From: Heliocidaris erythrogramma
Lineage: Eukaryota; Echinodermata; Echinoidea; Camarodonta; Echinometridae
NCBI GenBank assembly: GCA_025617745.1
Contig: CM046856.1
Span: forward strand, 48,922,873 to 48,986,872
Direction: 5' to 3'
DNA length: 64,000 nucleotides
Shown: positions 39,746 to 63,221 of the stretch, in pieces
How the letters are laid out: the number at the start of each line of letters is the position of its first letter
Position numbering within the stretch: position 1 is the first letter of the stretch
Made by a program: the position numbers and the translations under genes
The notes under the pieces: generated by a model
What the model saw: only the letters and a program-made list of their open reading frames with translations
Databases searched by the model: none
What the model was told of the DNA's origin: nothing

Positions 39746-40299
39746 ATTTGATAAGTCTAGATGTACTTCAAGTCATTGGACATCCCCTCCCTGCTGGAGT
39801 GACTTTCACAGAGGGTCTGACTGGGGCTGCTTTTAAATTTGAAGGAGACTCCAATGCCGGCCGCCATGCTGAGCTCATCCTGCCCACAGAGTTCTCCACC
39901 AACTTTCCAGAGTTCTCCATCCTGATGCTGCTGCGCCCCTACAGCGGTAGCAGGGGTACCGTCTTTGGCGTCACGGACACCTCCCAACGGACAATCATCC
40001 TCAGCGTGAACATTACGAGCATCTCAGTAGTAGAGATGCGGATAAGCTTGATGCTAACAGACGTAGACTATACCAGTGATTCGATAGAGGTAGCGGCTTT
40101 TGTCGTGCCTTCCTTTATGAACCAGTGGACGCAACTGGCGTTGAGCGTCAGAGACAACCAGGTCACCCTGTTCCTGGACTGTCAGGAAATTGGTACGCAG
40201 TCTTTCGATAAACATCCAGGATGGCACATCAGAATACCTCAGATGGCTCCCCTTTTCATTGGACATCTAGGAATAGTTGGAGAACGGGTGCAATATTAT
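39746..40299 (+). CDS. COL18A1-like: Multiplexin-type (XV/XVIII-like) collagen, exon encoding the TSPN/laminin-G-like domain
   Basis: The exon starts after a pyrimidine-rich acceptor (TCTTTCAG) and ends at a GTAAGC donor. It enters in phase 1 (one base of the first codon comes from an upstream exon) and leaves in phase 0, giving 185 codons. The reading begins DLISLDVLQVIGHPLP. Conserved-looking landmarks of a thrombospondin-N domain follow: FSILMLLRP (about residues 57-65), VFGVTD (73-78), QWTQLALSV (127-135) and LFLDCQEI (142-149), whose Cys146 should pair with the Cys in the next exon. There is one N-glycosylation sequon, NIT (89-91). From memory, vertebrate types XV/XVIII have near-identical landmarks (QWTHLALSV, VDCEEF) with the same spacing. 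The domain lies at the N-terminus of secreted basement-membrane collagens. A TSPN domain alone could also belong to another collagen with an N-terminal TSPN domain; the Ser-Gly exons downstream favour XV/XVIII. The ATG inside the intron at 39667 is not a real start. Confidence 0.9.
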
Positions 40300-40307
40300 G
40301 TAAGCAG

Positions 40308-40630
40308 GGGGGGTGTTTCATAAAGTTGTTCGTAAAGTTACGCATGACTTTACAAACAACTTGAATATGAAGTGCCAGATAGGATGCCCAAAGTATTTCC
40401 TGATGTTTTGACAAAGTGTGACTGTATTTTCAATAACCTCAATCAAATTATGGCAAAATATATACTTTGCATTAAAAAGGTTTGTTATAATAAGAATGTT
40501 AATCGACTTCTGCACAGTTCAACTTTAGTTGATGCAGTTAATAAGGATTGAGCATCCCATTTGGCTTGCCATATTTAAGTCATTCGTAAAGTCATGCGCA
40601 ACTTCACGAACAGCTTTATGAAACACCCCC
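40308..40630. mobile_element. Harbinger-like MITE inserted at the TSPN-exon splice donor
   Basis: The left GGGTGTTTCATAAAGTTGTT and the complement of the right end GGGTGTTTCATAAAGCTGTT continue as near-identical inverted arms of about 45 bp. CAG flanks both sides (40305-40307 and 40631-40633), fitting a 3-bp duplication. The left duplication overlaps the donor GTAAGC at 40300-40305, which remains intact. Confidence 0.82.
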
Positions 40631-40717
40631 CAGTTCTTGTAGTTTGTTTATGGGCAAGTCTAAGTTATAAATTTGTCCCATACGTTGCCGACCGCATCTA
40701 AGATTTTAGCATATCTG

Positions 40718-40824
40718 GGCCCCCGTTTCATAAAACTATTATCAATAGCAAATTTATCATAGAGAGTGAATTTATCATAGAAATGAGGCAGTTGCTTTGA
40801 TAACAAGTTTCATGAAACAGGGCC
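40718..40824. mobile_element. Harbinger-like MITE with CTG duplication (107 bp)
   Basis: Ends GGCCCCCGTTTCATAAAAC and GTTTCATGAAACAGGGCC are bounded by CTG at 40715-40717 and 40825-40827. Internal words TTATCATAGA and TTGATAACAAG are shared with other copies. Confidence 0.8.
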
Positions 40825-41616
40825 CTGATGACCATATCAATCTGAAAACCCTCCCAGAGCTTGGATCATACAAAATGTCAAGAACAATGATACTCTTATG
40901 TCAATTATTGCAATTCCATAATATGTGATAACGAATGGGACATACCTTGGCCTTGCCTTTATCTAAATAATTGTTTTTTCTTGTGCCCAGAAGAAAGGCA
41001 CAAATGGATACAAAGCTAGTGGATGTACATTTGTAGAGATACCTAATCTGAAGTTTTGAACTTTCTTTGAATCCAGTTAAAAAACACATTTCAGTCAGTA
41101 CATCATCTTAATTGTCAACCGATAGGTTATTACTTCTCTATATTATTTCTTTATCCTTTCATTACAGAACTGTAATATTAAACAAAAATGGACAAAAAAC
41201 TTTTGTTCATGACTTTTTGCTGGACACACAATGAATTAGGAAGCCATTTTGAAAATATGCAGCAGCCCTTGGACAGAGAATTTTTTTCTTGCGGATCATC
41301 TTCAACAACTTATTTTATTAATTGGAACTAAACAAAAGTGAAAACGGAAGGATAGAAAATATATTAACTTGTTAAAAATTAATCCCTATACGTGTAATTT
41401 TATTTAAAACCATTCCAGATTTTAGTGTAACTTTACAATCTTGTATGCCATTACCTTCTTTTCCTGTTCAAAGTAGCCCTCATTAAAATCCATCATATCA
41501 GTTAAACATCAAACCACTTCATCTTTAATTGTCAGGTTTTTGTTTGAAAAAGAGAGTAAAGAATGCTATCTAGGTATTACTTTATTAATTTACTGTATTT
41601 CTGTTTGTATTTTAAG

Positions 41617-41685
41617 GGGGATATCCAGCAGATTTTTATCACTAACAGTGCAGACTCGGCTGAAGAACATTGTCCAATCGGTGAA
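41617..41685 (+). CDS. COL18A1-like: Multiplexin-type collagen, exon 2: end of TSPN domain with second cysteine
   Basis: A 69-nt exon (23 codons) lies between a TTGTATTTTAAG acceptor and a consensus GTAAGT donor, in phase 0 at both ends, so it joins the preceding exon without a frame change. It reads GDIQQIFITN, then SADSAEEHCPIGE. This matches the last beta-strand of TSPN domains, where a short IQxL-type strand is followed by a conserved Cys about a dozen residues later; here the Cys is residue 19. It is too short to stand out as an open reading frame. It is recognised from the splice signals, the phase and the domain logic. Confidence 0.88.
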
Positions 41686-43172
41686 GTAAGTAAAATTATA
41701 GTTACTCCTCCCCTGCAAGGGAGGGCTCCTGTTATGATATAATATGCATGAAATATAATTTCAAGGAAGCAGAACCTCTTTGCAATATGTATTTTTAGGT
41801 ATATTATAGTGAAGTAATTTAGGCTATCACTATTTATTATTCACATATAAATCGAGGAAAATAGTGAAAGTAAAAAAGGGGCAGTCTGGTAAAAAATATA
41901 AAATTGTTGGCACTCATAAATTAGTATTAATAAATTACGAGATTGGGAAGGAAGATTTGAATAAGTGTTTTCTTTCTCTGAAAGATCTTTGAAACCTTTA
42001 AAACAAACTAAAACAAATCTAAACTGTACTTCATTCTTTGTTTTCTGTTCCTCTGCTATAACTTTAAGGGCAACATCTCATTCTACTTATAATACTAGCC
42101 TAACTTGTATTTCACTGATTTTCAACATATCATATCCCAAATTAGTTTTCTTGATTCTTAATAGAAACCCTGTTTACCCCCTACTTTCCCATTAATAATA
42201 TAGCAAGTTGACAATTTACCATTTATCCCACTTAATTGCCAATCAGGATTTCCTTTTGAAGTAAAACTCATGAAGGTTTTTATGTATAATTTTTTACATC
42301 TTAGCTGACTATTATAATACATTCTTTGTGAGTGAGGAAAAAATAGATACATGTACGCATATTGCCTTGAAAATTTGAGAGATGTTGAACTAAAAAGAGG
42401 TAATAAACCAAAAAAAAAATGGTAGTGCTTACTTCAATAGGTTACTTTATCTGAGAAAAAGCAAAGAGAATTTTGAAAAGCATCCTTTACAAGAATGACT
42501 GCAGTCTTATTTATTTCTGACATGCTTTGCTCTTGCATGAATCATGCAAATATTATATATTATGATTGGTGCAGCTATTTACCACTTTTGTTTCATGCAT
42601 GTTTATTTTCAAAGTTAAGTTTTATGCAGTGAAATATTATACTGATCCAAAGCTAGCAAGCACAACAGAGCAATGTGAATATAGCACATTTGACAGAAAG
42701 GCATTACACTGCACAGCTATATCACCTGATAGTAGAGAGAGAGAAAGTGCATATTAAATCTCATGTATGTATCTATCGATTGCACAATTTGGTTGATTTT
42801 GTGGCTAAAAAATATAGCATTGCTATCCATATGAAGTATGAAAAACACTAATTTTTAATAGTCTATTACTCTGCTATTGTGAATGACAAGCTCTTAAAGT
42901 GACTAGAAGAGAAATTAATCCATATTGAAATAGTATCAAATAAAAATATCATTTATTGCAATTCAATTAGTTTTATGAAGAAACACTATTAAAAGCTCTC
43001 CATTGTTTTAATTTGCTTTTATTTTCATTTGCATACATTAACCATGTTTTATTGCCTCTTTATTTTCTATCACTGAAGCCTGATTTCAATATTTATCTTG
43101 ATATGATTTTAACCATTGGCCATTCGTGCATCCCATTGCTTTTCACTGCTTCCTTCTCACTTATGCGTCCAG
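41686..43172 (+). other. Intron 2 (1,487 bp)
   Basis: A GT-AG intron in phase 0. It is AT-rich, and no transposon with clear ends or coding fragment was seen. Confidence 0.7.
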
Positions 43173-43232
43173 ACATCGGGAAGCGGTTCTATGGCACTTA
43201 GACAAAGTGCCGGAGAGGATTGGGCCTTCGTA
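43173..43232 (+). CDS. COL18A1-like: Probable multiplexin-type collagen exon 3: Ser-Gly linker
   Basis: A 60-nt candidate exon (20 codons, phase 0 on both sides) has a strong pyrimidine tract and CAG acceptor (TTATGCGTCCAG) and a consensus GTAAGT donor. It reads TSGSGSMALRQSAGEDWAFV. The SGSG core followed by acidic residues is the kind of site to which glycosaminoglycan chains are added in multiplexin non-collagenous regions. The length is a multiple of three, and the phase agrees with the neighbouring exons. I recognise no domain beyond the Ser-Gly site. It could be alternatively spliced, since dropping it keeps the frame. Confidence 0.72.
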
Positions 43233-44930
43233 GTAAGTTTTAATTCATTCATTTGTCAACCCTTGCACCCCATTTTTAATCAGAAATCGGGTCGAAAGGT
43301 ACCTTTTTTTGTGTTGGATGTGCGGTAACAGTCGTGGGCTTTTAGTCAGGTAAATGTTGTCAATCGTTGCGCCTTTTTCCGATCGAGAATTGGGATTAAA
43401 GTCCAATGTCCTGTGCCTTGGATGTCTGTAATATTGTCACACACTTGTCCTTATCGTAATGAAGGTGAATCGTATCCGTGTATATTCAATGTTATAGTTT
43501 GGACGTAATTGACATCTGGTAATTGACAAAAAAGTTTGTGGGTGAATTAAGAGATGCATTAGTTGTAAGCATAAATGGTGGTGGTGTTGCAAGTTGCAGC
43601 AGGAGTAAAAGCAGCAGAAACTGTAGTAACAGAACCCTTTAACAATATCTGAACTTAATGTGTGCATTGTAAAAGGCCCTTGCTTTTAATATTAGGAGGA
43701 ATGCAGTAGAGAAAAATTGTAGTAATGATAATAATGATAATAGCCTCATCACTATTATATACTGTTCTCCCTGAGGGCCCTGCAGTCATAGTACTAGTAT
43801 GAAATATAAAACTGTACTTATTGAAGACAATTTTCAAAACATCTTTAGTGTATAAATGCAGTAGCATAGTTTAAAGCTGCATGAGAGAAGAATTCAAAGT
43901 AAAGCTCGGAAATGTGTGTTGTAGTTGCAGAACATCATGGACATTCATATGAACTAATGATAGCCATCTGCTCCCATCAAAAGTCTCATAATTGCCAATC
44001 ATATTTCCTCAAATGGCACTACAGTTAACTAAACAGAATGTGCTTCCCGATTACATAAAATAATTGTAAAGTCTGGTAAAATTTTAACATTTGCATTGTA
44101 TGAATCTTGTAGCACATGTAGAGCTTTTCAGTTAAGATGAGGGGGGGGGAAGAGGAAAGAAAAAATGCAAGAAGACAGATGAAGACAAATATATAAATAA
44201 AACTTGAATTCTAGAAAAGTTTTTACAGAATTAGGAGAGAAAGTGCCAAAAAAAGAAATAACTGGAAATGCATTTGTTATTAAACTCGACAGTGGGCTTG
44301 TACCAGAGCAAAATTTTGAATATCTTTCACCCTAACATCATATATCTGTACGATCTGCGTGATCTTTTGTGACACTGATTTACCTGTAAGCAAGCTTCAG
44401 GTAGAGATTGCACATAAAAATGCTAGATATTGTGTAGTAGCCGTTGCTTAATTATGCAGGTTGAGCAATTTATTTGTCACAAGACATTAGCTTTAGTTTA
44501 GCCCATAAGCTTATTTGTTCAACAAATTTTAAAGATAACATGCAATTATTAAACTAACCAATCAGCTAACTACTCGCTGCTGAAACATGCAAGCTTACTA
44601 CTAACTAATACTGTCATATTCTGTGTATCCTATGTATTTTCTAACAAGTTGCCATGTGCTTCACTTTTATCACTTCGTATAGGATGCACTTTGCACTGGG
44701 TTAAAGATGCATGTAAATGTGAAAGCATTTTAGATCGTAACTATTATTCTCATATTTTATGTATTTGGGCAAGTCTGAGGTATTTTGTCATTTGCTGTCC
44801 CATATGTTACAAAGAATATGGAAACTGAACAACAAGTGACTCCAAAAGTGTCATCATTTTTACTCGATTTTTGGTCTGCTCTAAGGTCTAGTAGGGCTAT
44901 TGTCTTGATATGATCATCTGGGCCTTGTGT

Positions 44931-45061
44931 CATAAGCTTGTTATCAGTAACAGCTGCCACATTTCTGTGACAAATTTGCTCTCAGCCAATCAGATGCAAG
45001 GATTTCAGTAGCTTATAACAGTTATTACAACTCTTTATTGATAACAAGTTTTATGAAACAT
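44931..45061. mobile_element. Harbinger-like MITE, right end decayed
   Basis: It begins after CTG with GGCCTTGTGTCATAAGCTTG, has the core TTTGCTCTCAGCCAATCAGA and ends ACAAGTTTTATGAAACA. Confidence 0.7.
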
Positions 45062-45390
45062 ATACTACAATCGAAGATGCAGTCGGTAATGTACTTGACA
45101 AAATACCGTGGACGTGCCCAATTGCTAATAATTCGCAATGCTTCAATCACTTTATCACGTTTTAGAGATTGCACACTGCACTGTTTAAAAGATGCATGTT
45201 AATGTAATGCTTGTTTTATGTCGGTATTCCCATTGAAAAATATATGTATTTTATATCAATTTGATCATTTATATGTATTTTTGTGCCCTATGACAAGATA
45301 GTGACCTATTTCTGAGGTCAGATTTGTTTGTTATGAGCAGTTGGTCATTGAGTGGTCATCTTATTAATATCTTGTGTCCACTTATTATAT

Positions 45391-45461
45391 TGTGTGCTGA
45401 GACCAGTACATTAACTCATGTCACTTTACATGGAGTAATGACCTCCTAGCTCTCAAAAGAT
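45391..45461 (+). repeat. Dispersed hairpin repeat, diverged copy
   Basis: Arms CTGAGACCAGTACATTAACT and GGAGTAATGACCTCCTAGCT. A left half-arm lies near 45562 (AGCCAGAGGGGTGTAAACTC). Confidence 0.55.
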
Positions 45462-45610
45462 GCCTGTAATGTAGGATATTCTCAAAGCTAAGTTCTTTAT
45501 GTGACATCAAACCAAGTTCTGTGATAACTCCTTGATCAGACTGTCTGCTCATGCATGTAGCCAGAGGGGTGTAAACTCATAATAATGCTTGAACAGAAAC
45601 AGAGATTTAA

Positions 45611-45905
45611 AGGGAAATCCGACCTTAATAGCAAGTTGATGTGCAAGAAAGAGGAAAAATCAGAGAAGCAGATAATGGTGAAAGTTTGAATGAAATCGAA
45701 CAAGCAATAAGAAAGTTATGAATTTTTGAAAGTTGTAATCACTATACATATGGGAATTTCAAATTGGCCGAATAGGTAATGTCACTGTGATGTAGCTGTG
45801 GACAACTCCCTCATTCACTCAAAATGACTAAAATGTCACTTTTTTCAAAATGTATTACTCAGTAGGATCTTTTTCTTTCATGAGGACCTACAACAATATG
45901 CTATC
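45611..45905 (+). mobile_element. Truncated TTAA-flanked MITE
   Basis: AGGGAAATCCGACC follows TTAA (45607-45610), resembling the tip AGGGATAC of the 35834 element, with AGAAGCAGATAATGGTGAAA inside. No matching right end was seen, so the copy appears truncated and the right limit is approximate. Confidence 0.45.
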
Positions 45906-45930
45906 TCCAATAAGTTTGTATCAAATTGTC

Positions 45931-46014
45931 TTCTCCTGCAGAGCCAGAGGGGTGTTAACTAGTGATTTAATAACAGAAATGGAAAGATAATGAACTTCTA
46001 GCTCTCAACAGACA
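45931..46014 (+). repeat. Dispersed hairpin repeat copy
   Basis: Arms AGAGCCAGAGGGGTGTTAAC and ATAATGAACTTCTAGCTCTC. Confidence 0.65.
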
Positions 46015-46462
46015 AAATTTAGTCAAAGCTATAATACTGCATGTTTCTAGAGCAATTATTAGCATTTCCTGCAGGGCTGTCGGTCACCGATTGGTCATCG
46101 TATGTATTCTTCTGCTGCATCCACAACATTTCCTAGAAGCTTGTAACCTTGGATACCCTCAAAAATAGCCTTTTTAACCTCATTCAAATTACGTGAATAT
46201 TGAGTTGCCCTTCCTCAGCAGTGTAACATGCATTTGGCACCTGTTCATGGTCTAGTATTTAGGCCCCGGTCACACTGTAAAACTGATCCTAAACTGATCC
46301 TAAACCGATCGATAATAAAAAAAACCCTTGGCGTTTTAGTGTAATGTAGGTTTACTGTTGATTTTTATGTCAGTGTTTTATCAGTGTTGTTAGTCTTTTT
46401 TTTGAGTGGTTTTGAGTTGATTTCAAATGTTGTTAGGCTCTGGTCTTTCGAGAATGTTCAGA

Positions 46463-46717
46463 GGATGTTACATATACAATTACATTTTGGAGGAGGGTGG
46501 TGGGGAAGCCTAATTATCAGGGGAGCATTTCATCACATGTCTTGTCAGTGATTTTTACTGACAAATTTGCTCTCAGCCAGTCAGATGCAAGGATTTCAGT
46601 AGCTTATAACAGTTGTCTGTAAAAATCACTGACAAGACACGTGATGAAATACCCCCCTGATAATTAGGCCTCCCTCACCACCCTCCTCCAAAATGTTATT
46701 GTATATATGTAACATCC
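46463..46717. repeat. 255-bp palindrome centred on a Harbinger-like MITE
   Basis: The left arm GGATGTTACATATACAATTA continues through TTTTGGAGGAGGGTGGTGGG and TAATTATCAGGGG to the MITE end. The right arm is its near-perfect complement, ending TATATGTAACATCC. The MITE (46521-46656, core TTTGCTCTCAGCCAGTCAGA) forms the middle. The palindrome therefore extends about 55 bp beyond the MITE on each side. Confidence 0.82.
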
Positions 46718-47229
46718 TTGATGAAACACTCCCCAAGACTTGCTTGTAGATCAGCTAGAGACAATTCAGGTCAATGCAGTAAAGTGGAATTTGATAACCT
46801 TTTTGTTTGGTCTTGTCCATGTGACTTGGGTATCAGGAAAGCTTGAGATACCATGCCATTCCGTTTGCGTGTTAAACTTAATGAGGTATGACTAAGAGGG
46901 TAAGGAGAAGAATGAAGCTGCTATTACTAGCAGGTTCATCTGCACTTTCTGTCATTCATGAAACGAGGACAAATAATCGTGACTTTGATCAAAATATTAC
47001 AATTTCATGTTCTGGAACACATTTATTTATGGCTTTTTTTTTTCTTCTAAAAATGACATAAAAATTTGGAAATGGGAGTGAGGAAAGAAAAAAACTTGAC
47101 TCGCTGCCACCTGTGACTATTCTGAATCACAATGTAGATGATCTTTTTAGAATTAGATGATACAGCAGAATGGGTGAAATTCTTCATTGTTTTTATTCCT
47201 TTTTTGTCCTCAAACAGCTAAGTAATTTT

Positions 47230-47302
47230 TTCTGCTGGAAGCAAGAAAGGCGTTAACTCTTAGCATTTACATTAAAGTCCTTCTAGTTCTCAACATATAA
47301 TG
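47230..47302 (+). repeat. Dispersed hairpin repeat copy
   Basis: Arms GGAAGCAAGAAAGGCGTTAA and TTAAAGTCCTTCTAGTTCTC. Confidence 0.65.
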
Positions 47303-47401
47303 CAGTTGTTGGTTTATTCTCAAATGCAGCTATGGTCTAATAGTTACTCACACGCAGTTGGATTTCTAAATTATAAGGATGTTATTAAGAATTAATTTAT
47401 A

Positions 47402-47768
47402 CCCCTTTCAAACCATGCATTTACCCTGGGAAGTGCCCTGCGTAAGTTCAGAGTTACGCGGGGAAAGGTTTGGTTTGAAAAGGACAATGGAAAAGTTACC
47501 CGCGTAAAGCCGAAGAACTTCTCCACGTAACTTGTCCACCTACCGAGGTGGAGAACTTACACGGGGAAAGAGATTGGGAAAGCGGTTGGTGAAATAAGTC
47601 AGCGATCAATTATCACTTCCGGCCGGTCACATTATGATCCTGTGTTGTCGCATCGACTTTCATTAACCCCGCACGAAAACACAAACACGGTAAAGTAAGG
47701 AATTCTTGCTCGTAAAATTTGAAGTTTTTCACCTGGGAAGTTCAGCGGGGGAAACTGGTTTGAAAGGG
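47402..47768. mobile_element. DNA transposon remnant with CCCTTTCAAACCA ends (367 bp)
   Basis: CCCCTTTCAAACCA at the left matches the complement of TGGTTTGAAAGGG at the right, and TTATA abuts both ends (47397-47401 and 47769-47773), suggesting a 4-5 bp duplication. The interior repeats GGGGAAAG and GAACTTACACGGGG words. No transposase frame; superfamily uncertain. Confidence 0.72.
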
Positions 47769-48330
47769 TTATAAGTTGCAATAACACACAGAGTTTATAT
47801 CAGAACGTCAGTTTTGTCTTCCCAGATAGACAAGGACATGGTATGTAATTGAAAGCTTGTATTGTGTATGAAACTGAGTGTTTCAGAGAGGGGTTATATG
47901 TTACATACACTTCATAATGGTGATAATTTGAAAGTACAAAATCTAAAAAGGTACCAAATTTGAGGGAAAAAAATATCCTTATTAGAAGGAAAATGAGAAG
48001 GAGTAGCAATACTAAAAGAGCTACAATTGTAGTTTATACTTAGTAGATTTTAAGCAGAGGGATAAACAATAAATATGAAAGAAAATAAGAGTAAAAGTAA
48101 TGACTGAACAAACAATTATAGAAATTTATGGGTAGGATTAGAAAAAACACATGAGTTTGATGCAGAGAATGTGTGTTTTTATTTGTGTATGGAGTACGAC
48201 CAATAAATCTTCGCATACACCACTGAGACGAGGACATCTAACAATGTGTAAGCCTTTCAAACCTCCATAATCACAGTTATCTCTTAGAAACTTTCAAAGC
48301 GGATTAGGGAGGTGATTGGTAGCTGTAAAT

Positions 48331-48480
48331 GGCAATTACTGGTAAGTGGTGGTATATGAAAAGACACAAATAAGTTTTTCTTAAAAGTCAGTCAACTAGT
48401 GTCATTTGAAACTTAAACTCTATAATTTAATGTTGGTATAAAAGGCAATTACATGTAAGTGGTGGCATAAAAAACACAAA
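48331..48480 (+). repeat. Two-unit direct repeat, ~113-bp spacing
   Basis: GGCAATTACxxGTAAGTGGT recurs at 48331 and 48444, followed each time by GGxATAxxAAAxACACAAA. Confidence 0.65.
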
Positions 48481-48711
48481 AGAGTTTGTCTCAAAACAGC
48501 AAATCATGTGATCCATTCTTTTGGCATGTCTGCTAGATAGAGGGTGATCTGACATTTATTTCTTTGGGGACAATTAAATTGCTCTGGGCTTTATTTCATC
48601 AAAGATTTAGGGTTGCAATTTGGTTTTAAATCAGGTTTAGGGTTGGGATCAAGTTAGGTTAAGTGTTGGGTCTCGAGTCGCAGGAGCATGGCACCTGTAC
48701 CATAAAGCTGC

Positions 48712-48993
48712 TAATAATAATGATAATATTGGGTATTTTTATAGCACTCATATCCACCACGTATAAAGGTGCTCAAGGCGCTCCAATATTACCCCGGCTC
48801 TAGCTAGGCTACCGAATTCGTTGCTCACAGCATTCAAGGAATTCCTTCCCACCGGTACCCATTTAACACCTGGGTTGAGAGTGGCAAATGTAGATTAATG
48901 TCTTGCCAAAGAGGACTAGTGCTGTGCCGGGGTTCGAACCCACGACCTTTGCATCTCCAGTCAAGTGTTTAAACCACTCGACTACGACACCTG
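48712..48993 (-). mobile_element. tRNA-derived SINE (copy B), nearly full length
   Basis: Read on the - strand, it starts with GTGTCGTAGTCGAGTGGTTT (A-box region), then GTGGGTTCGAACCCCGG (a canonical B box). The body shares TTTGGCAAGACATT and TTTGCCACTCTC with copy A, and the tail is (ATT)n at 48712-48730. It lies antisense within collagen intron 3. A 75-codon - strand frame over it is the usual SINE read-through and not a gene. Confidence 0.85.
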
Positions 48994-51900: not shown

Positions 51901-52160
51901 ATGGGGGGGGGGGGGTACTTGCCCTTGAATGAAGAAAAAAGTGGAATAAAGAGAGAGAGAGAGAGAGAGAAGGGAAGAGGGGGAAATGGAACATGAAAAG
52001 AAGATGACAGAACCCCCTCCCACACCCGCCCCCCCTAATTGATGACCTTGTTTATTCGCATTTCATCTGACGACCCCTCCCCCATGATGCCAGTGCCCCC
52101 TCCATGTTTGAATTTTCGCTGCCCCACTAATCTAGCATATGCAGCGTACTTACCATAGTT
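48994..52160. other. Intronic sequence with low-complexity tracts
   Basis: It contains G15 (49530-49544), G13 (51903-51915) and (GA)10 (51951-51970). An open frame at 50253-50681 (142 codons, +) is long for this base composition but has no recognised motif. Confidence 0.4.
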
Positions 52161-52162
52161 AA

Positions 52163-52588
52163 AGACCTCAGCCTGACCGAATTTTGAAATATACCCTTTA
52201 TTCATCCACGGGGAGCTATATATTTTCTGAACAAATTGAAACCAACTTCATGAGATTCCGTTTCCTGTGGAATGAGTAACAGCGTCCCGAATGTTGAGCC
52301 CCGGTGGTTTGGGCCCCGTCTCTGAGGAACGCTACTTTGCGGGGGGGTGAAAATTTGATGACGACATATCGTGTAGACGCACTCGGAGCTGTATACATGA
52401 CATGTCGTCACACGTCTAGCGACCCCCTGCAGTGTTACGCCATAGGGAGGGGGCGGACCAAAAAAATTATCTTTTTTATTTTTTATGGATAAACGGAGAC
52501 GAAAATTTATGAATAACCAGGGTAATTATATTCTTTGTTTACTAAGCTTTACGTCAATATATGGTTGTTTTGGGTCAGGCTGAGGTCT
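52163..52588. mobile_element. piggyBac-like element with TTAA target sites (426 bp)
   Basis: AGACCTCAGCCTGACC at the left and GGTCAGGCTGAGGTCT at the right are perfect 16-bp inverted ends, each bordered by TTAA (52159-52162 and 52589-52592). There is no transposase. Confidence 0.83.
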
Positions 52589-53053
52589 TTAATTAAAATT
52601 TATTATGGTAAATGGGATGAATATTTCACTCATTGTCTCTTCGTTCTTTGTTATCCTGCTGCCTGCATACAAATTCCTTACAAAAGGGTATCCTGATCGT
52701 ATATATGGATCCATTGTTAGTACCAGGGAGTTCTCCCTGATGGTACTTGCCGCCGTGGAATACTCAGTACAGTGGAATGCGGTTGCTACCAGTCTCTGGT
52801 ACAACCATCACCCTACTATTAGGCATACTCCTCGCAATTAATTACCCCATTAAGTCATGAGAGAAAAACATCTGGAGCTGTGATGGGGTATGGCTCCTGC
52901 ACCCTTCCTACTGGTAGATGATGAATTGGTGTCGTAGATTGAACTTGGCAGACCTCTGTGGTTTGATCAACAAGATTCAAAGGGACCAAACTGGTCCTGA
53001 TTGGGACATACTGGAGACTCCAAACAACACTTGTTAGTCATACCAAGCTTCTG

Positions 53054-53195
53054 GGCCCCATTTTATAAAATTTGTTATCAATAACAAATTACAATTATTG
53101 TTATAAGCTACTGAAATCCTTGAATCTGATTGGCTGAGAGTAAATTTGTCATAGAAAATGGGGCAGTTGTTATTGATGTTTTATGAAACAGTGTG
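53054..53195. mobile_element. Harbinger-like MITE with CTG duplication, inverse orientation
   Basis: GGCCCCATTTTATAAAATTT and TGATGTTTTATGAAACAG ends are bounded by CTG at 53051-53053 and 53196-53198. The core reads as the complement (TCTGATTGGCTGAGAG) of that in the other copies. Confidence 0.78.
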
Positions 53196-55050
53196 CTGGA
53201 GATATAAAAAGCAGAATGATGCTCACATATACATAAAGGCCTTGCTATGAATTTTAAGGCAAAAGTGCTTATTCTGAAGCCTTTTCATATGTTGCAAAGA
53301 GATTAGGACTAACCTTTACACTCCCACCAAATTATCACAAAATTTCATGAGGCAATCTTTTGTAATTATGGTTTATTTTGCTTGTGTTTATCTTGATATA
53401 AATAGTGTACAGTATCAAAATTCACAATTCACAATTCAAAAATTTGTTGACCTTTTGAATTTCAAGAAGAAACACATTCTTATCTCACTCCAGAAGTAAT
53501 GTGAACAGTTAGGACCACAGCACTGTAAATGTAAGATGGGACTGGATGATTCATTGAGAGGGTTACATAAAGACTTTTAATTACCTAAAGTTAAAGGTGG
53601 TGTCATTAATTTGAGAATTTATAAACAGCAAATGATATGCCCAGTAGCAAGATGATCATGATGCGATATGTATCTTGAAAACCTCCATCTTAATTAAAAA
53701 AGAATCGTTTAATGAATGGATTTTTCCATGGCTGTATATGTGACATGTGCTACTTAAATATATGGATAATGATTGTTGTCTTTGTGATATCAAGTTTCCT
53801 TGGGATGTTTTTCTCGATTAAGGGGTTGATGTTTTCCTTTAATTCCAATGCGGGAGGTTTGTTTTCCAAGTCGTATCATCCTACATCTCGTGTCCTGACC
53901 CTTTTGATTAATGAGTGATCTTTGTTGAGGCTTGTATTAAACTGTCATGGTATAACCTGTCATAAATGCCTTGTATATGTTTGGGCATCTATATAGGCCC
54001 CTGCTATAGCGCTAAATCGGAAACACAAACAATCATTTAAAGGTGCTGTATAATAATTTTGAAAATCTTCTTTGGAGGATGATGTGTCCATAAATCTATT
54101 TGAAAATGTTTGAAAAAATATTAGAAGTTCTATGTGGTGAAAGAGAAATCCCCCTTCTTTTGTTGATATTTGGTCACTTTAGCAAATGAACTAGAGCTTG
54201 CCTTAAAGTTATCTATTTATATTTGAGCAATATTTCACTTGATATTTATTATTATTATTATCATTTAGCTCTCTTAAACGATTTGAATTGATTTCAATTG
54301 TATTTTGATTATTAGTTAATACATAAAAGAAAGTAATATTAACAATTCCATTGTATTAGACTTGGCCAGAATGGAACATTAGATCTATTAAAAAATACTT
54401 TCTAAAAAAAGGATTTGAATGTAAGAAAGAAAGAAGCCTCAAGCAAAGTATCGATGAATGCAAAACAAAATGCTTAATTTCTAGAGGCAGATCGCCTAAG
54501 AGGTTCAGCCTATTGCTGCCTGCATTGACCCTGCATCAAATGGTAGGTGGAAATGAAATAATGTGTTTATTTGAATTCACCTGGAATTTTTCAGTCATTT
54601 TATTTATTCATTTTGACCATGAAATGTTTCGAAGCGTAACCTTTCAAATGTCCAGTCATATGGGTTTGGGGATATGTCCGTGACCTTATGCATTATCACT
54701 GATAAAAAATGATCCAATTATTTCATTTCCTTTGCCTCTTATTTTTTAATTTTGTCATCATATCATCCTAATCTCTGAAAGGAGGAAATTAGAATTGACA
54801 ATGGAAATCAATCGCAAGTCATTTCAGGAGCTTTAACTTCTTGCCAATGAGTTACAGAAATAAAGCACAACTGATATTGGTGTCATCTGCTGAATTATGT
54901 GGTACAGTTAAAATGTACCTCCTACAAATACAATGACTACTACTGACAGGTTAATACACATACCACTTAAAGCTGTTTGTATTGAGTATTGTAGTTTAAG
55001 GTTTCCCATGATATTTCCCCTGTAACACTCAGCTAGGGCTGTTTCTGTGG

Positions 55051-55088
<38 letters not shown>

Positions 55089-55360
55089 ATGATTTGATCT
55101 GATTTGAATTTCAGGGCAAAACCTGCTTTGTGCCAACAATACATACCATGGGTGATTTTGAATGCTAGCCTGAAAGCATGAACTGAAATAGATCACTTTG
55201 GACAGCCTTATAATAGTTAAGGAAGTTATTGCACAATATGAAATTAAGATTTTGGTCAGAATCCTTTTAGTCACAACCTGAATATGTCATATCAGATTAC
55301 CTTCCAAACCATTTATTTGATATCTACCTTGTATGACATATCAAGAAAAGTATCAATTTG
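53196..55360. other. Intronic sequence
   Basis: (TA)15 at about 55053-55082. No other structure recognised. Confidence 0.4.
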
Positions 55361-55440
55361 CCTGCTGATCGAGAGCGAGAAGTGTGTTAACCCATATTAG
55401 TTTATACAGAACTTACACCCTTCTGATTCTCACCAGATGA
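55361..55440 (+). repeat. Dispersed hairpin repeat copy
   Basis: Arms CGAGAGCGAGAAGTGTGTTA and ACTTACACCCTTCTGATTCT. Confidence 0.6.
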
Positions 55441-55658
55441 GCTGCCTTTGGATTTCACTGAAACCTTTCCCCATATATCAGTCGATTATTAGAATTTTTT
55501 GAATGATTCATTATTATAAAATTATACCCCCTAAAGTTCTGACATTCCATTTTTAGCAAGGAATTTCCAACTGTGCAATTGATCAATGAAACATGTTCAG
55601 TTTTTAATTTCAGGAAGGTATGAAAATGATTTGACAGATGTCAAAATGATTGATGTCT

Positions 55659-55660
<2 letters not shown>

Positions 55661-55691
<31 letters not shown>

Positions 55692-55709
55692 GTGGGGGGG
55701 GGGGGGGGG
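55661..55709. repeat. T30 followed by G-rich homopolymer tract
   Basis: Thirty T are followed by GGT and 16 G. Such a run is prone to assembly length error. Confidence 0.9.
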
Positions 55710-58464
55710 AATTTCAGCCTTGACATTGCTAACCATGCAATATTTTTAGATGTGTAAATGCAATTGAACCAGGTGACAACTTGAAATGTCAAATATATCG
55801 CATACTTTCCCCTTTGTATTTCTTCCCCAATTCAGTTATGTTTGTTTAGAAAAATAAGTATAAGACTATTTCAAAAAGTTGTTTTGAGGGAAAATAGTAT
55901 TTCTGAAATATCACTGCTATTGCTTTTTGGAAGATAATGGAGTTTCTATGGCCAGTATATTTGTTTTACATCTCTTTAAAAAAAATAATATATGAATAAT
56001 GACTATTAAAAAAAATACAAAATGAAAAAGTTCATCTAGATGCTGGTTGTGCAAAGGTAGGTTGGTCAAGTTCAGACATATATAGATAAGTATCATATTT
56101 AGGACAGGACCATTAATATCCAATTACTGTGAAAGTGACTTACTTGCCTCCTTCAGGTCCCCTAGTCTATAACCACAGACACTGTATCGCTGATGGATAA
56201 ATCTGAACCTCGTGCTGAATGGAATAGAAGATTTCCTTATGTCCATAGCCAAGCTTGCGATTTTGTTCCCTACATTTGTTGAAATATATTAATGAGTTGA
56301 TGGACTGTTTCTGTAAAGTGATTAAAAAATATGTAAAGATGTTTCTTGGCTTTTTAAATGAAGCCTGGGACTAAGTCATGAGACTATGAGACAGTTGACC
56401 ATTGACACTGACTCCCTGTGAAGATCATCGCTAGAGATCAAGTGAAGAAATTCATTCAGTCTAGTTGTAATAGCAGTAGTGCTAGCCTAGATCATTGACT
56501 TGGTGTGACTCCCCCTCCCCCTCCCCCCCCCCCCCCACCACCACAACAACCATTCAAAATTTTTCTTTGCGAATCTCAAATTGGCAACTTTTTCAACCCA
56601 ATTTGATCAAAGGGAAAAAAAATACAGATTTCTTTTGGGGGGATCACTTTTCTTTTTTCATTTTACATAACACTTGTCAGCTAATTCGAAAATGTGATTT
56701 CGATGCTCACCCCTCCACGTTTGAAATGTTCTCGCTACATGTATTTAGTCTCCCAAGTAGAGGTCCCACCATTACACATCTATATTGATTTATATATCTA
56801 GCTTTCTAGATTTCAATGAAATGCAAGACATGACTCATTGGAGCTTAATGCAGAACTGAGCAAACATTAAACTTAATGAAAAAATGTGAAACCATCCACC
56901 AATTCTTTCAAATAGATAATGCATTCTCCTTTTCTACATGTAAAAGAAATCACAAATCTTTAAAAGCGATGACTAATTCAGGGCTTTTATTATTATATTT
57001 GTACTATCTTGTCTCTCCGTAGTTATTAAGTTTCTACTTTGATGCTCCATTTATCATCTATTGAAACTGCAAACTAGTAAATCTTTCCCACCCCCAATCC
57101 ACCCCCTGTGATCTTTGTCTCCCCTTCTGACTCCATGTGTTTGTCATAAGCAATCTCCATTGAAACTTTGTTGCATTTATTGTAAACTATCTGTCAGAGT
57201 TACATATTTCTGTCTATTCTATTTATGTTCAGTCATTTGTATCAGCGTCTCTTTGTCAGATACATGTATCTCTTCTTTCATTTCTCACAGTAATGTATTT
57301 GTTGAAGCTTTATTTTTAACCGATGTCTCGATTTATTTGTCATGTCATAGTTGTTATCTCCAGCTTATGGCATCGGTATTCGTCAACTAAACAAAATGTC
57401 AAGGAAAATATGTTTTTCAGATTCCGTAGCTCAGTGAAACGGTGCTTCTTGCATTCATATGGAGTCCAATTTTATCAGCTTTCGAATTGATTTTGATTTT
57501 ATATTTCATGTTCTTTATGCAGAGAATCTTCCTTATGAATGGTGTTTACTACAATTTTAGATGAAAATCATTGTTGTTGAGCCACTTTGTACATCCTATT
57601 TATGTGCAGTTATCTTCAGCTGATAGCATGTGTGACTTCTGTATTTAAGTTTGATCCCTAAAATTGTTTCAAGTTCATGTTGAACACTTCGTATTTATGT
57701 GTTCAACAATTTGATTCCTCAAAGACTTGATTTCTTTCTCTCCAATTTGGCCCTGTCATTAATGAAATAATTGGTGATTCATATCCAAACAACCCTCCCA
57801 TTTAAAATTAAATGAATTTGGTGCCAGTGTCCCAGTTCACATTTACTATCTGTGTCATTCTCAATTCTTTTTCCTGTCACATGAGGCCTAATGTATGCAT
57901 TGGGGTAAAATCTCCATAGGGAGTATTTGTAATGATATTCAATATTAATTTTTGTGAATCACTGATGAAAGAAATCACCCACTTGTCATAGTTTGTTACT
58001 GCTTAGGTATGTCATACTCAGTAATGTGCCCTATATAATAAGCCAGATCCCAACAAATTACCACATCTTTTGAAAGCCTCATCTTCCTTCTCCCTTTTTC
58101 TCCATCATTACCATTGTTTCCTGTCTTCTTTTCTCTCTCTTTCTTCCTCTATCTTGCTATCTCTTCTCTTCTTCCTCCTCACTTCTTACATCTTGCATCC
58201 ACTCACCCCCCCCCTTCCTGGTCATCCTCAGTATTGTCCTTCTTCAGGATACCATTGAATAACATCTCTAAAAAGCCCTTGTTCTCTCTCTCTCTCTCTC
58301 TCTCTCTCTCCTGTTTCCTCTATAGAATCCCATATCTGTCTTATTATCTCTTTTCTCTTTTTCTCTCCTCTCTTCCTCTGTCTTCCACTCATCGTCCCAT
58401 CTCTCTCTATCCCACTCTCCCCCCATCCCTGTCTTTCACTATTTCCTAAATACAATTATAATAT
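55710..58464. other. Intronic sequence with C- and CT-rich tracts
   Basis: C-rich near 56510-56536; CT-rich 58080-58440 with (CT)n at about 58283-58311. No gene. Confidence 0.4.
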
Positions 58465-58528
58465 CTTTTGAGAGATATGAAAGGGCGTTAATTGAGCAAA
58501 ATCCCTTTTGGTTCTTGATCAGCAGATG
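58465..58528 (+). repeat. Dispersed hairpin repeat, degenerate copy
   Basis: Left GAGATATGAAAGGGCGTTAA and right ATCCCTTTTGGTTCTTGATC. Confidence 0.45.
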
Positions 58529-59084
58529 CCTTTGTATTGTTCTTTTCATACATCCTTTTGCTTCCTCCGCTATCCTTCTCCTTTTCAATGTCTCCCTGCA
58601 TCTCTTTTCACATGATTTTCCTTGGCCTTTTTAAAATCATCCTAGCATCTCCACACAGTTCCTCATCCATGTTTTTAAAATGATATTTTCCTACATATCT
58701 TTTCTCACCTAGATGGATGCTATGTATTGTTTTCTTGCCTCTTCCTGTAAACATACCACCTAAGCTTATACCCTCTACCAATGATACCCTGCATACATAC
58801 CTCTCCCCACCTCATGAATTCCATGTTGCATACCTGTCTATCCCTACCTATCTTGATCCATGTAAGCTACGTTCATATATACGGGACTTGGGAATTAGAA
58901 ACTTTAAATTATCTAAACAAAAACGAGTGTCCACATGGGCCTGTATCAACGATGCTCCTTGTTCTGAGATTACAAGTCGGGCGATCATCGTTTAACATGG
59001 ACAGAGAGGTCATCGTTTATAACAAGTTTGCTAAATTTTAAGTTTATTCTTTCCATATAACGTCCATGACTACGACGGAGGACC

Positions 59085-59230
59085 CCCTGCTGCTCGTAGT
59101 TTCTGCGTTAACTACAAGCTCGCTTGTGGCTCTAGAATCTATGAGTCCGTTCATACGGCCTGAAATTACAAGATAATTTAAACTACAAGCGAAACTTAGT
59201 TTAGTTTAGCTCCCCTCGTGTGAACCTGAC
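59085..59230. mobile_element. Fragment related to the 24706-25122 element, inverted
   Basis: The end TTAGCTCCCCTCGTGTGAAC and the block CTACAAGCTCGCTTGTGGCT are complements of sequences at 24708 and 24828. Confidence 0.6.
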
Positions 59231-59310
59231 CTTGGATGTCATTCATTCCCCTTGATCCATCCCAAATCCACCCCTTCTGCCCAGTCCAGTCCTTTCACAG
59301 CTTCTCTGAG

Positions 59311-59805
59311 TGAAGGTGCATTTCCATTAGCCTGAACTAGCTTGAGCTTATGTCAATATTAGACCTGTCAGTGCTTCTTGCCAGAGAGAAGTTTGAGTGA
59401 GAACATGGACCTACATGGTTAGAAGTTCCCTGTCCTTATTACCCAAGTCAAGCAACACCTACTTGCTCAAGGAATTAACTCAAGCCTCAGAACATATCAT
59501 TGTCCAAGTGCATGCGTCTCACTAGCGGCGGCGTCCTCACTAACGGCGTCCTCCCTAGCGGCGTCCTCACTAGCGAATTCGCCTACTAATTGACTACATT
59601 TAATAGCTTTTACTATTTCATGAACAAGCAGTAATTTGCTGGGAATAATTAATAGCTTGAGGTAATGTCTCAAGTGCGATGGTGCAGTAAGTCTGCTATT
59701 TGCTCACTCACTGGGAATTAATTAGCTCAATCCAGTTGTGATTAGGTTAATTTCCTTTGGATCAGAATTAGCTGACTATTTTGCAAATGCAGGCTAGGGA
59801 AAACA
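59311..59805. mobile_element. TIR element, relative of 10738-11040
   Basis: GGTGCATTTCCATTAGCCTG, AGCTTGAGCTTATGTC and AAGGAATTAACTCAAGCCTC parallel the first copy. The right end (GCTAGGGAAAACAGGCCC) is decayed. Confidence 0.6.
59517..59580 (+). repeat. Short minisatellite (CTCACTAGCGGCGTC-like), about four units
   Basis: CTCACTAGCGGCGGCGTC, CTCACTAACGGCGTC, CTCCCTAGCGGCGTC and CTCACTAGCGAATTC lie in succession within the 59311 element, GC-rich against AT-rich flanks. Confidence 0.75.
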
Positions 59806-60726
59806 GGCCCCCTTTGATATCCCCTTGACATTGAAAACACACAATCCCTCCATGCTATGTCATTCATGGTGTTTCAACATTCCTCTGCTCTGGGAATGTG
59901 TCCCTTCTGTCTTCTCGTCGAAAGATGTGCTACCCATCACTCATCTCAACTTCTAAAGCATGGTATATTTTTGGAGAACCCTGTAACCGGTATCCATTCA
60001 TGTTTCGTTTATATCAGTATGAATAAAGGTCTTCAATGTAATTTTTTTAAAAGGTAGAGCCCCCCTCCCCCACCCCCGAAAAGAGTTGTTCAACATTACT
60101 TTTTAGATGATTATTTGAATTAAAAAAGAAGAAATATTTTACATTTTGTATAGGGGTTTGTAGACCAAATTTGCCAACAAGTTAGCCAAAAATTTTCCAA
60201 CAAGCAAATAGAAAAGGTCCCCAGATTTTGAAATTTGCTAATTAATTGTAAACACTTGTCAGATTTTAAGTTGTTACAGTCAGAGGTTTTGAAATTGTTT
60301 CCGACATATCAAACAAAAATGTTACATATTGTATGCAGTTCTTGAGATTTGCTGCAAGTCTCTATATTTTTACAAATTTGCTAGAAGATAACGTATAGGG
60401 GTATTACAACCCGCCCCCCATGACTTCCCTGATGATGTCCTCATTTTCTGTGACACTCATTCCAGTTTCCATCTTTTCCAGTCTTTGTATCCGAGTGGAT
60501 GGATCTATTTACTGACTTTTTATTCATTCTGCCATCTTCACATTCTACTCCAGTCCATTACATCTTCAATGGAACTCGTGTCATCGCCGGCACCAGTGTT
60601 ATGTGTTACTCTACTGTTTTATCCGATGCTGTCCGAAAAGCCATCAAATCCAGACTTGTTTCTCAGACAAATCCCGTCTTATTTCTTGAACCCAAACATT
60701 CCACCCTCCTGGAATCCTATTCCTAA
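59806..60726. other. Intronic sequence
   Basis: Overlapping + strand frames of 75 and 93 codons at 60485-60766 have no recognised motif or splice support. Confidence 0.35.
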
Positions 60727-60848
60727 TACCACAGTCACACTGCCAAATCGACTCCACACGGACTGATTCTTGGCCATTGGTGGCAATGTAATTTTTTGTT
60801 CGGTGTGTTGTCAGTCTGGTGTCGGTCGTGTTGGTGTGACTGTGGTAT
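60727..60848. mobile_element. Short MITE with TACCACAGTCACAC ends (~120 bp)
   Basis: TACCACAGTCACACTG at the left complements GTGTGACTGTGGTA at the right. A diverged relative of the tip may occur near 46263 (CCCCGGTCACACTG). Confidence 0.65.
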
Positions 60849-60867
60849 ATATACCTCTACCCTTCAC

Positions 60868-61284
60868 TACCTCTCTCTCTCTCTCGCTCTCTCTCTCTGG
60901 TTCCCTCTCTCTGGTTCCCTCTCTTGTTCTCTCTCTTGTTCTCTCTTCCTTGTTCACCCTCTTGTTCTCTCTTCCTTGTTCACCATATTAATCTCACTGT
61001 CTCTATTTCTCTATTCAACCCTTTTTTTTCCTACAGCCTCTCTCTCTCTTGATATATCGATCAGTAATGAGTCAATCATTGGATCATTTGATTGATTGAT
61101 TGATCAGTAAATGGATCAGTCAACCTGTCTTTCACTGTTCCTCACCCCTCTTCACCATTATCTCCTGTCTTTCTCAGTATGTCTCTGCGTCTCTCCTCTT
61201 TCCCACCCTCCCTATTACTCTGTCTCTGCTGCTTTTTCTTCCACTCTCTTCCACTCTCTTCCACTCTCTCAGTGTCTATCTGTC

Positions 61285-61324
<40 letters not shown>

Positions 61325-61345
61325 CCTCCCTCCTTCCCCTCCCTC
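60868..61345. repeat. CT-rich low-complexity and minisatellite zone
   Basis: (CT)n near 60870-60898; CTCTCTTGTTCTCTC-type units to about 60990; TTCCACTCTC repeats near 61240-61270; (CT)n with CCCT units 61280-61345. Open frames up to 159 codons here are compositional. Confidence 0.85.
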
Positions 61346-63058
61346 TACGTCTCCAGACAGCTCTGCTTTCATGCTGCCCACCTCACCATAAGTTTCCAAA
61401 TCCCTTCTCATCTCATTTTCGTTCACTAAAGCTATTTCGTCACCTGGAACAACTCTCCGTAAACCAGGCCAAGATCAAAAGATTTCTAGTTCCCTCAGTT
61501 TCTACTAGGTATATCCCTTCCAAGTTGTTCTGGAATTCAGTGAAGGACCATTCTTCTAAGCTCTATGTTGATCATACTTTTCTGGTTTAAAGTTCAGACT
61601 GTGCTCCAGAAACGGTGACATTAGCATTATCCAACTGCTTCTGTCGGGTGTCATAATAATAGATCACTTGATTTGAGATAGGTGACTGCCTCCCCCCACC
61701 CCCAAAATATACTGTGTGAGTTGGGATTCAAAACGTAAGATTTTCTTGTTGTTTGAATGAAATGACTGGTTATACATGTAGTAGCAACAGGGGCCATTTT
61801 ATTATTTGTATGTGATGATTCTCCTATATCCTTTTTTTTATAACAAATGTCAATGACTAATAGATTGTACCTTTGTTTTGAAAAACACAAAGGAACAAGT
61901 TATCTTTATGGAATACATGTTGAAAATTGTAGTCCAAAAGGGTACTGGAAGCAATATTACATGAATGGTGAGCATATGATATGGATACTATGGAATTCAG
62001 TTGATTTCAATCCTCCATTTATGAGGATATGTATGATTAATAACTACATTCAGTTTGGGTTTGTAAAAAAAAAAGAAGATTCCTTTAATATGTACAAAAA
62101 AATATTGACAGAAGTTGGAGTGTATGTTACATATTTCCTTACTCTCATGTTTTCAGCATGAATTTATCAAAGAGGAAGATTTCACCTGGTAGACCTTTCA
62201 GATTATTTTTTTCACAATATCAGCGTGATATTATCTGATATAATGTGACTGAACTCCTTGTGACCTGTTGTTTTGTTGTTTTCCTTATGGGTACTATTTT
62301 AAAGAATTCTTTTGAGATATTTGATATTTATGTCAGAAAGTTTCAAGCAAAATAATCTCTTTGTGTGTCTACCTGATAAAATTGCCTACTCTTAGCGTAC
62401 CACAGCACTTTTCTCTGTATTTGCAATAGCGAGGTTGAAAATGCTAAATGTTCACTATTGATGATTTTTAGACCTATCCAAACAGAATTCAGAACTACAT
62501 TTTTTTTTAAAGCTGTAAATCACTTTTACTCTATAATGTTTGTGGATTGTCATATTTTTGAATATATCATTATAGTGTGTGTCACTTTTGTCATATCAGT
62601 TTTCACGTGGGAAATTTTCTTGACTTTCCCTAATATGATGACAGTCATACATACATGTGCCTGTAGTTGGAATGATTTTTTTTTTTTGGGGGGGGGTGAT
62701 TTAGGTCCATTATACATGAACACATTATTTGTATTGTTCTAAATGTTTTGTCTTTTATGTAAATAATTATGTATTTCATTGTCTTTTTTATGTATTTCAA
62801 TGAGCACCAGAACGTTAATCCATTTCCCCCATTTATGTATATTGCAGTTACTTTCACCCATTGTGTAAATACAAACATTGTATTCATATTTTTTGTCTGT
62901 TTATTTAATTTTTTTATCTTGTTTGTTTTTTGTTTGTTTTTCTTTTTTGGGTCACTGTATTTTTTTCTTCATGTGTAAAAATGTATTTACAACTTCATGA
63001 GTACTCACATCATATTGCAGAAGTTCTATTTATTTCATCTCATATTAATTATTTCTTT

Positions 63059-63060
<2 letters not shown>
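61346..63060. other. Intronic sequence
   Basis: AT-rich, with T- and G-rich runs near 62670-62697. Nothing else recognised. Confidence 0.4.
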
Positions 63061-63089
<29 letters not shown>

Positions 63090-63092
63090 TTT
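63061..63092 (+). repeat. (CT)n within the polypyrimidine region upstream of exon 4
   Basis: A pure CT run about 30 bases upstream of the exon 4 acceptor. Its length is probably variable between individuals. Confidence 0.85.
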
Positions 63093-63122
63093 TATCTCTT
63101 TATCTCTTTGTCTTTACATCAG

Positions 63123-63221
63123 TTTTCAGGAAGTGGGGAGGAGCCTACAGAGATGCCTGACATGCCTATCACATACTTCACCCAGTATGACGCTGAGACT
63201 CCATCAACTCCAAAAGTACTG
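63123..63221 (+). CDS. COL18A1-like: Multiplexin-type collagen exon 4: acidic Ser-Gly linker
   Basis: A 99-nt exon (33 codons, phase 0 on both sides) follows a long CT-rich tract ending TTTACATCAG and precedes a GTAAGC donor. It begins FSGSGEEPTEMPDMP and continues through ITYFTQYDAETPSTPKVL. SGSG-E-E is a strong glycosaminoglycan-attachment context, and the Pro/Thr/Glu-rich remainder fits the low-complexity spacer between TSPN and the collagenous region of types XV/XVIII. A second AG seven bases downstream (63128-63129) would start the exon at 63130 and shift the frame relative to exon 3, so the upstream acceptor is preferred. No Gly-X-Y repeat is in the window. Confidence 0.83.

What the first reader, a model, noticed from the sequence alone, without database searches (positions are those of the whole stretch)
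39746..63221. Four in-frame exons of a multiplexin (XV/XVIII-like) collagen
The splice signals, phases (0/0/0 after the TSPN exon), paired Cys residues across two exons and two Ser-Gly linkers assemble into a coherent N-terminal proteoglycan-collagen. Three of the four exons are too short or repeat-adjacent for simple gene finders, so existing models may miss them, especially exon 3.
Basis: partly seen in the sequence, partly recalled or inferred. Interest (0 to 1): 0.7.

Follow-up and report, generated by a model that had tools for sequence, protein, structure and literature searches.

The report
Front exons of a multiplexin collagen
The window holds the front part of an ordinary animal basement-membrane collagen gene of the XV/XVIII (multiplexin) kind, whose collagen and endostatin parts lie just beyond the window; it is a correct find of a known kind of gene.

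Summary
The finding holds up. The decisive part lies beyond the window on the same strand: 24 Gly-X-Y exons, a collagen trimerization domain (PF20010, 28.6 bits, cut-off 23.8) and endostatin (PF06482, 221 bits, cut-off 29.4). The genome's 3 endostatin matches all lie in this gene. Joined, 35 predicted exons read 1,556 residues without an internal stop. It is a multiplexin; XV or XVIII cannot be told. Exons 1 and 2 are firm, exon 4 strong. Exon 3 rests on content (Ser-Gly repeat, G+C); its splice signals are no better than chance. No RNA was available. One lead is new: a lone fibronectin type III exon, phase 1-1, 42 kb upstream (fn3 50.9 bits), would splice in frame onto the TSPN exon, giving an FN3-TSPN front end comparable with an FNIII-bearing CLE-1 isoform of C. 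elegans. Overall: known kind of gene, low surprise.

The parts
39746..40299 (+). Exon 1: most of the TSPN (laminin-G-like) domain, phase 1 in, phase 0 out, first Cys of the pair
   Evidence: AG/GT borders, open frame, Laminin_G_3 20.1 bits (below cut-off 27.6); predicted mostly beta, at low confidence
41617..41685 (+). Exon 2: end of the TSPN region with the second Cys (GDIQQIFITNSADSAEEHCPIGE), phase 0-0
   Evidence: rank 10 of 33 plus-strand candidates by splice score
43173..43232 (+). Exon 3: 20-residue linker TSGSGSMALRQSAGEDWAFV, phase 0-0, possible glycosaminoglycan attachment site
   Evidence: (rank 6 of 33); splice score at decoy level, Ser-Gly content and G+C above decoys
63123..63221 (+). 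Exon 4: acidic/Pro linker FSGSGEEPTEMPDMPITYFTQYDAETPSTPKVL, phase 0-0, possible glycosaminoglycan attachment site
   Evidence: (rank 2 of 33); its 171-bp surroundings gave one match in the genome, itself (that search skips simple repeats)

Best explanation
The four exons are the N-terminal non-collagenous part (TSPN domain plus Ser-Gly and acidic linker) of the genome's only detected multiplexin gene, a collagen XV/XVIII orthologue. Shown here by sequence: the exon anatomy and one continuous predicted reading frame into an interrupted triple helix, a trimerization domain, a hinge and an endostatin domain. Inferred from knowledge of the family: three chains trimerize through the C-terminal domain and the protein is secreted into basement membranes; the Ser-Gly linkers carry glycosaminoglycan chains; the TSPN domain binds matrix or cell-surface partners; endostatin can be cut off at the hinge.
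For: Exon borders and phases. 23 Gly-X-Y blocks of five or more triplets on the plus strand, all between 67.1 and 94.3 kb in window-extended coordinates, against 6 scattered blocks on the minus strand, in 184 kb. Chained collagen exons. PF20010 28.6 bits and PF06482 221 bits. Endostatin PDB hits: 4 distinct sequences, E 2.6e-50 to 9.7e-49, all collagen XV, XVIII or endostatin; the four endostatin Cys align with the XVIII chain 1bnl. 1,556-residue open model. All 3 endostatin matches in the genome lie in this gene. All 35 modelled exons are richer in G+C than their flanks. Echinoderms are reported to have one multiplexin with signal peptide, THBS domain, triple helices and endostatin (PMC10381214, passages seen); that this genome is an echinoderm's was not established.
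Against: No RNA evidence. TSPN scores below the Pfam cut-off, and so does the Collagen model on the last collagen exon (PF01391 24.5 bits, cut-off 27.2). Fold searches with the low-confidence model were inconclusive. Several splice sites are weak: exon 3's signals are at decoy level, donors of exons 1 and 3 lie below all 21 collagen donors scored, and one downstream collagen exon (85822-85893) has acceptor score -0.6. The hinge, and small exons in the 19.9-kb intron 3, may be incomplete.
Confidence: 0.95

Rival explanations
1. Exons 1, 2 and 4 are real but exon 3 is a chance open stretch, or is used only in some transcripts.
For: Its splice score (12.1) equals the best minus-strand decoy, and candidate exons of 12.0 or more occur 6.76 times per simulated region.
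Against: Ser-Gly repeat like exon 4's, absent from 100 of 100 simulations; G+C 0.53 against flank 0.34, reached by 4 of 70 decoys; 60 nt in phase 0-0, so it keeps the frame.
Confidence: 0.2
2. The exons belong to another TSPN collagen (a FACIT such as IX, or a V/XI-type fibrillar collagen) and the endostatin exons to a neighbouring gene.
For: Weak sequence likeness of the TSPN region to collagen IX (E 0.65) and thrombospondin-1 (E 1.3); a Gly-X-Y frame alone does not tell collagen classes apart.
Against: The predicted frame and phases run unbroken from TSPN through collagen, trimerization and endostatin exons on one strand; the next modelled exon after the last Gly-X-Y exon is the trimerization domain.
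Confidence: 0.03
3. Not exclusive of the best explanation: the gene also makes a longer N-terminus, with one FN3 domain exon at -2488..-2171 spliced onto the TSPN exon, and perhaps the signal exon at -66514..-66424.
For: The FN3 exon is phase 1-1 with both splice sites (7.9 and 6.4) and fn3 50.9 bits (cut-off 25). The TSPN exon needs a phase-1 donor. A motif scan of 5,348 open stretches over 284 kb, both strands, gave 3 hits, of which only this one looks like FN3. A signal-exon candidate with a phase-1 donor exists. A CLE isoform of C. elegans has FNIII repeats (PMC7852327, passages seen).
Against: 42 kb away; it could belong to another gene. A matching phase has a one-in-three chance. Its PDB hits are to many proteins, Titin best. 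The signal exon was picked by judgement from 103 candidates, 60 of them shown. The passages seen of the echinoderm review describe multiplexins without FN3.
Confidence: 0.55

Closest known systems
Collagen XV / XVIII (multiplexins), one orthologue in invertebrates such as cle-1 and Mp (PMC7852327, passages)
   Same: TSPN-like region with two Cys, Ser-Gly/acidic linker, interrupted triple helix, trimerization domain, endostatin domain; endostatin only in this gene by genome search
   Different: Cannot be called XV or XVIII (173.7 bits to an XVIII chain, 169.7 to XV). A Frizzled domain was not looked for.
C. elegans CLE-1 isoform with FNIII repeats
   Same: A fibronectin type III domain in a multiplexin, if the upstream exon is spliced in
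   Different: One FN3 domain found here; splicing not shown; the worm isoform is known to me here only from passages of PMC7852327
TSPN-bearing FACIT collagens such as collagen IX
   Same: TSPN-like region and interrupted Gly-X-Y; weak PDB hit to a collagen IX chain, E 0.65
   Different: FACITs have no endostatin (established knowledge); this gene does

Membership tests
Multiplexin (collagen XV/XVIII) | C-terminal endostatin domain | tested here: met
   PF06482 221 bits, cut-off 29.4; PDB hits from E 2.6e-50
Multiplexin (collagen XV/XVIII) | Collagen trimerization domain before the hinge | tested here: met
   PF20010 28.6 bits, cut-off 23.8
Multiplexin (collagen XV/XVIII) | Several triple-helical stretches with interruptions | tested here: met
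   14 runs of three or more Gly-X-Y triplets between residues 443 and 1275 of the model; a fifteenth regex run at 309 lies in the TSPN region and is not collagen. The Pfam Collagen model on the last collagen exon alone stayed below its cut-off (24.5 against 27.2).
Multiplexin (collagen XV/XVIII) | N-terminal TSPN domain | tested here: inconclusive
   Laminin_G_3 20.1 bits, under the cut-off of 27.6; weak PDB hits incl. collagen IX and thrombospondin-1; low-confidence beta fold, inconclusive searches. Two Cys, one each in exons 1 and 2.
Multiplexin (collagen XV/XVIII) | Glycosaminoglycan chains on Ser-Gly sites | not testable with these tools
   SGSG present in exons 3 and 4; attachment needs biochemistry
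Multiplexin (collagen XV/XVIII) | One transcript joining TSPN, collagen and endostatin exons | not testable with these tools
   Open frame and phases agree; no RNA data held
[quoted passage not shown]
   Endostatin exons in the same predicted frame chain

The most novel reading that the evidence does not exclude
This multiplexin has a long form with a single fibronectin type III domain in front of TSPN, sharing the FN3-plus-multiplexin plan with the nematode CLE-1 isoform. That would mean the plan is old within animals and was lost or replaced in vertebrates.
Probability: 0.4. Interest if true: 0.4.

Novelty: new member of a known kind. Interest (0 to 1): 0.2.

Why it matters
It fixes the 5' part of a gene that automatic naming can mislabel: a review says that most echinoderm multiplexins it studied are listed in NCBI as collagen type I (PMC10381214, passage). 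The TSPN region and its Ser-Gly linkers are what would make the protein a matrix proteoglycan. The possible FN3 front end would bear on what the ancestral multiplexin looked like.

Tried and rejected
A splice matrix trained on this gene's collagen exons was dropped: collagen exons start with Gly, so it marked down other exons (exon 3 acceptor -1.0, exon 4 acceptor 0.6), and one training acceptor was misplaced. A general consensus written from memory replaced it.

A signal exon within the first 39.7 kb of the window: 1 candidate at the strict setting, a poor one. With the fetched 100 kb upstream and a looser setting there were 103 candidates, 60 shown, many of them nested starts. The -66.5-kb one, fifth by donor score, was chosen by judgement.

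Whole-genome checks of exon 3, of TSPN relatives and of FN3 relatives did not complete. RNA genes in the window: none by ARAGORN (bacterial code) and none by Rfam at the gathering scores. Phylum and species were not determined. Papers: search listings; find passages of PMC10381214 and PMC7852327. No paper was read whole and no figure was seen. I saw no report of an FN3-bearing multiplexin in deuterostomes, but that rests only on these five listings and passages, not on an exhaustive search.

Full report
The observation. The four exons exist at the given coordinates with standard splice borders: 39746-40299, 41617-41685, 43173-43232 and 63123-63221. The first begins in phase 1 and each of the four ends in phase 0. 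One Cys lies in exon 1 and one in exon 2, and SGSG occurs in exons 3 and 4.

How far above chance. A general splice consensus gave 33 open phase-0 candidates on the plus strand of 40300-67000 and 23 on the minus strand. Exon 4 ranks 2, exon 3 ranks 6 and exon 2 ranks 10 of 33. The strength of exon 3's signals (12.1) equals the best minus-strand decoy. In 100 second-order Markov simulations, candidates of 12.0 or more numbered 6.76 per region, against 5 on the real plus strand and 2 on the minus strand. So splice signals alone prove nothing for exon 3. Donors of exons 1 and 3 are weaker than all 21 collagen donors scored, and acceptors of exons 2 and 4 are weaker than 17 of 18 collagen acceptors. 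Content helps: SGSG in 0 of 100 simulations, and exon 3's G+C 0.53, reached by 4 of 70 decoys of 45-120 nt with score 12 or more. I put exon 3 at about 0.8, exon 4 at about 0.9, and exons 1 and 2 above 0.95; these are judgements.

What it is. The window lies at G000:C4:48922873-48986872 of a 1.06-Gb genome in 26 contigs. With 120 kb fetched downstream, the plus strand carries 23 Gly-X-Y blocks of five or more triplets, all between 67.1 and 94.3 kb; the minus strand has 6 scattered ones, two of them opposite plus-strand blocks. A phase-consistent chain of 25 pieces was found by dynamic programming. By hand I merged two pieces into one exon and lengthened the first, which gives 24 collagen exons. 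They are followed by a trimerization exon at 95222-95350 (PF20010, 28.6 bits), a hinge exon at 99701-99865, and three endostatin exons at 102027-102224, 102699-102817 and 103424-103634 (PF06482, 221 bits). The full model of 35 exons gives 1,556 residues with only the final stop, and all 35 exons are richer in G+C than their flanks. A whole-genome search for endostatin scored 4 candidates and kept 3 matches, all in this gene; two of them run over an exon border and so contain a stop. This is therefore the only multiplexin detected here. Endostatin scores are close for collagen XVIII (173.7 bits) and XV (169.7 bits), as expected of a single invertebrate orthologue of both.

TSPN membership is the softest feature. 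Pfam Laminin_G_3 reaches 20.1 bits against a cut-off of 27.6. The PDB sequence search gave 5 weak hits, E 0.27-1.7: NbA1, collagen IX, thrombospondin-1 twice and Nanobody 7F. The predicted structure is mostly beta but of low confidence, and its matches are weak and generic. Position, Cys pair and the rest of the gene make TSPN the natural reading.

How it works. By established knowledge of multiplexins, three chains register through the C-terminal trimerization domain and wind an interrupted, flexible helix. The protein sits in basement membranes, carries glycosaminoglycan chains on Ser-Gly sites, and can release endostatin at the hinge. None of these steps is shown here; only the parts are.

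A lead beyond the finding. In 100 kb fetched upstream there is one fibronectin type III exon at -2488..-2171, phase 1-1, splice scores 7.9 and 6.4, fn3 50.9 bits against a cut-off of 25. A motif scan of 5,348 open stretches over 284 kb gave 3 hits, of which only this one looks like FN3; diverged FN3 domains could be missed. The TSPN exon needs a phase-1 donor, so the two would join in frame. A candidate signal exon (MQQASRWRSAALAVSWASVIGLLIIGTLSF) ends in a phase-1 donor at -66424. A review reports a CLE isoform of C. elegans with FNIII repeats (PMC7852327, passages). A review of echinoderm matrix describes multiplexins with signal peptide, THBS domain, triple helices and endostatin, and its passages on FN3 do not name multiplexins (PMC10381214, passages). 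Whether the FN3 exon belongs to this gene is unproven: it lies 42 kb away and a matching phase has a one-in-three chance.

Verdict. Known kind, new member. The FN3 front end is the one point worth a transcript check.

Noticed in passing
window -2488..-2171 (in L030), + strand: Lone fibronectin type III domain in one phase 1-1 exon, 42 kb upstream of the TSPN exon and in compatible phase.
   Followed up: partly
window -66514..-66424 (in L024), + strand: Candidate signal-peptide exon ending in a phase-1 donor, preceded by an acceptor-like site.
   Followed up: partly
window -82978..-79139 (in L022-L023), + strand; also about -97 and -91 kb (L021-L022): Long reading frames with zinc-knuckle, reverse-transcriptase and integrase-like sequence by eye, a Ty3-like retroelement; further upstream, LINE-like frames of which parts look nearly identical in two places. 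Judged by eye only.
   Followed up: no
37292-38603: Tandem array of a roughly 150-bp unit (about 8 copies) just upstream of the TSPN exon; its open frames look exon-like to a simple scan.
   Followed up: no
40309-40630: Intron 1 carries a TTTCATAAAG...CTTTATGAAA inverted-repeat pair close to the donor, like a small dispersed mobile element (seen by eye).
   Followed up: no
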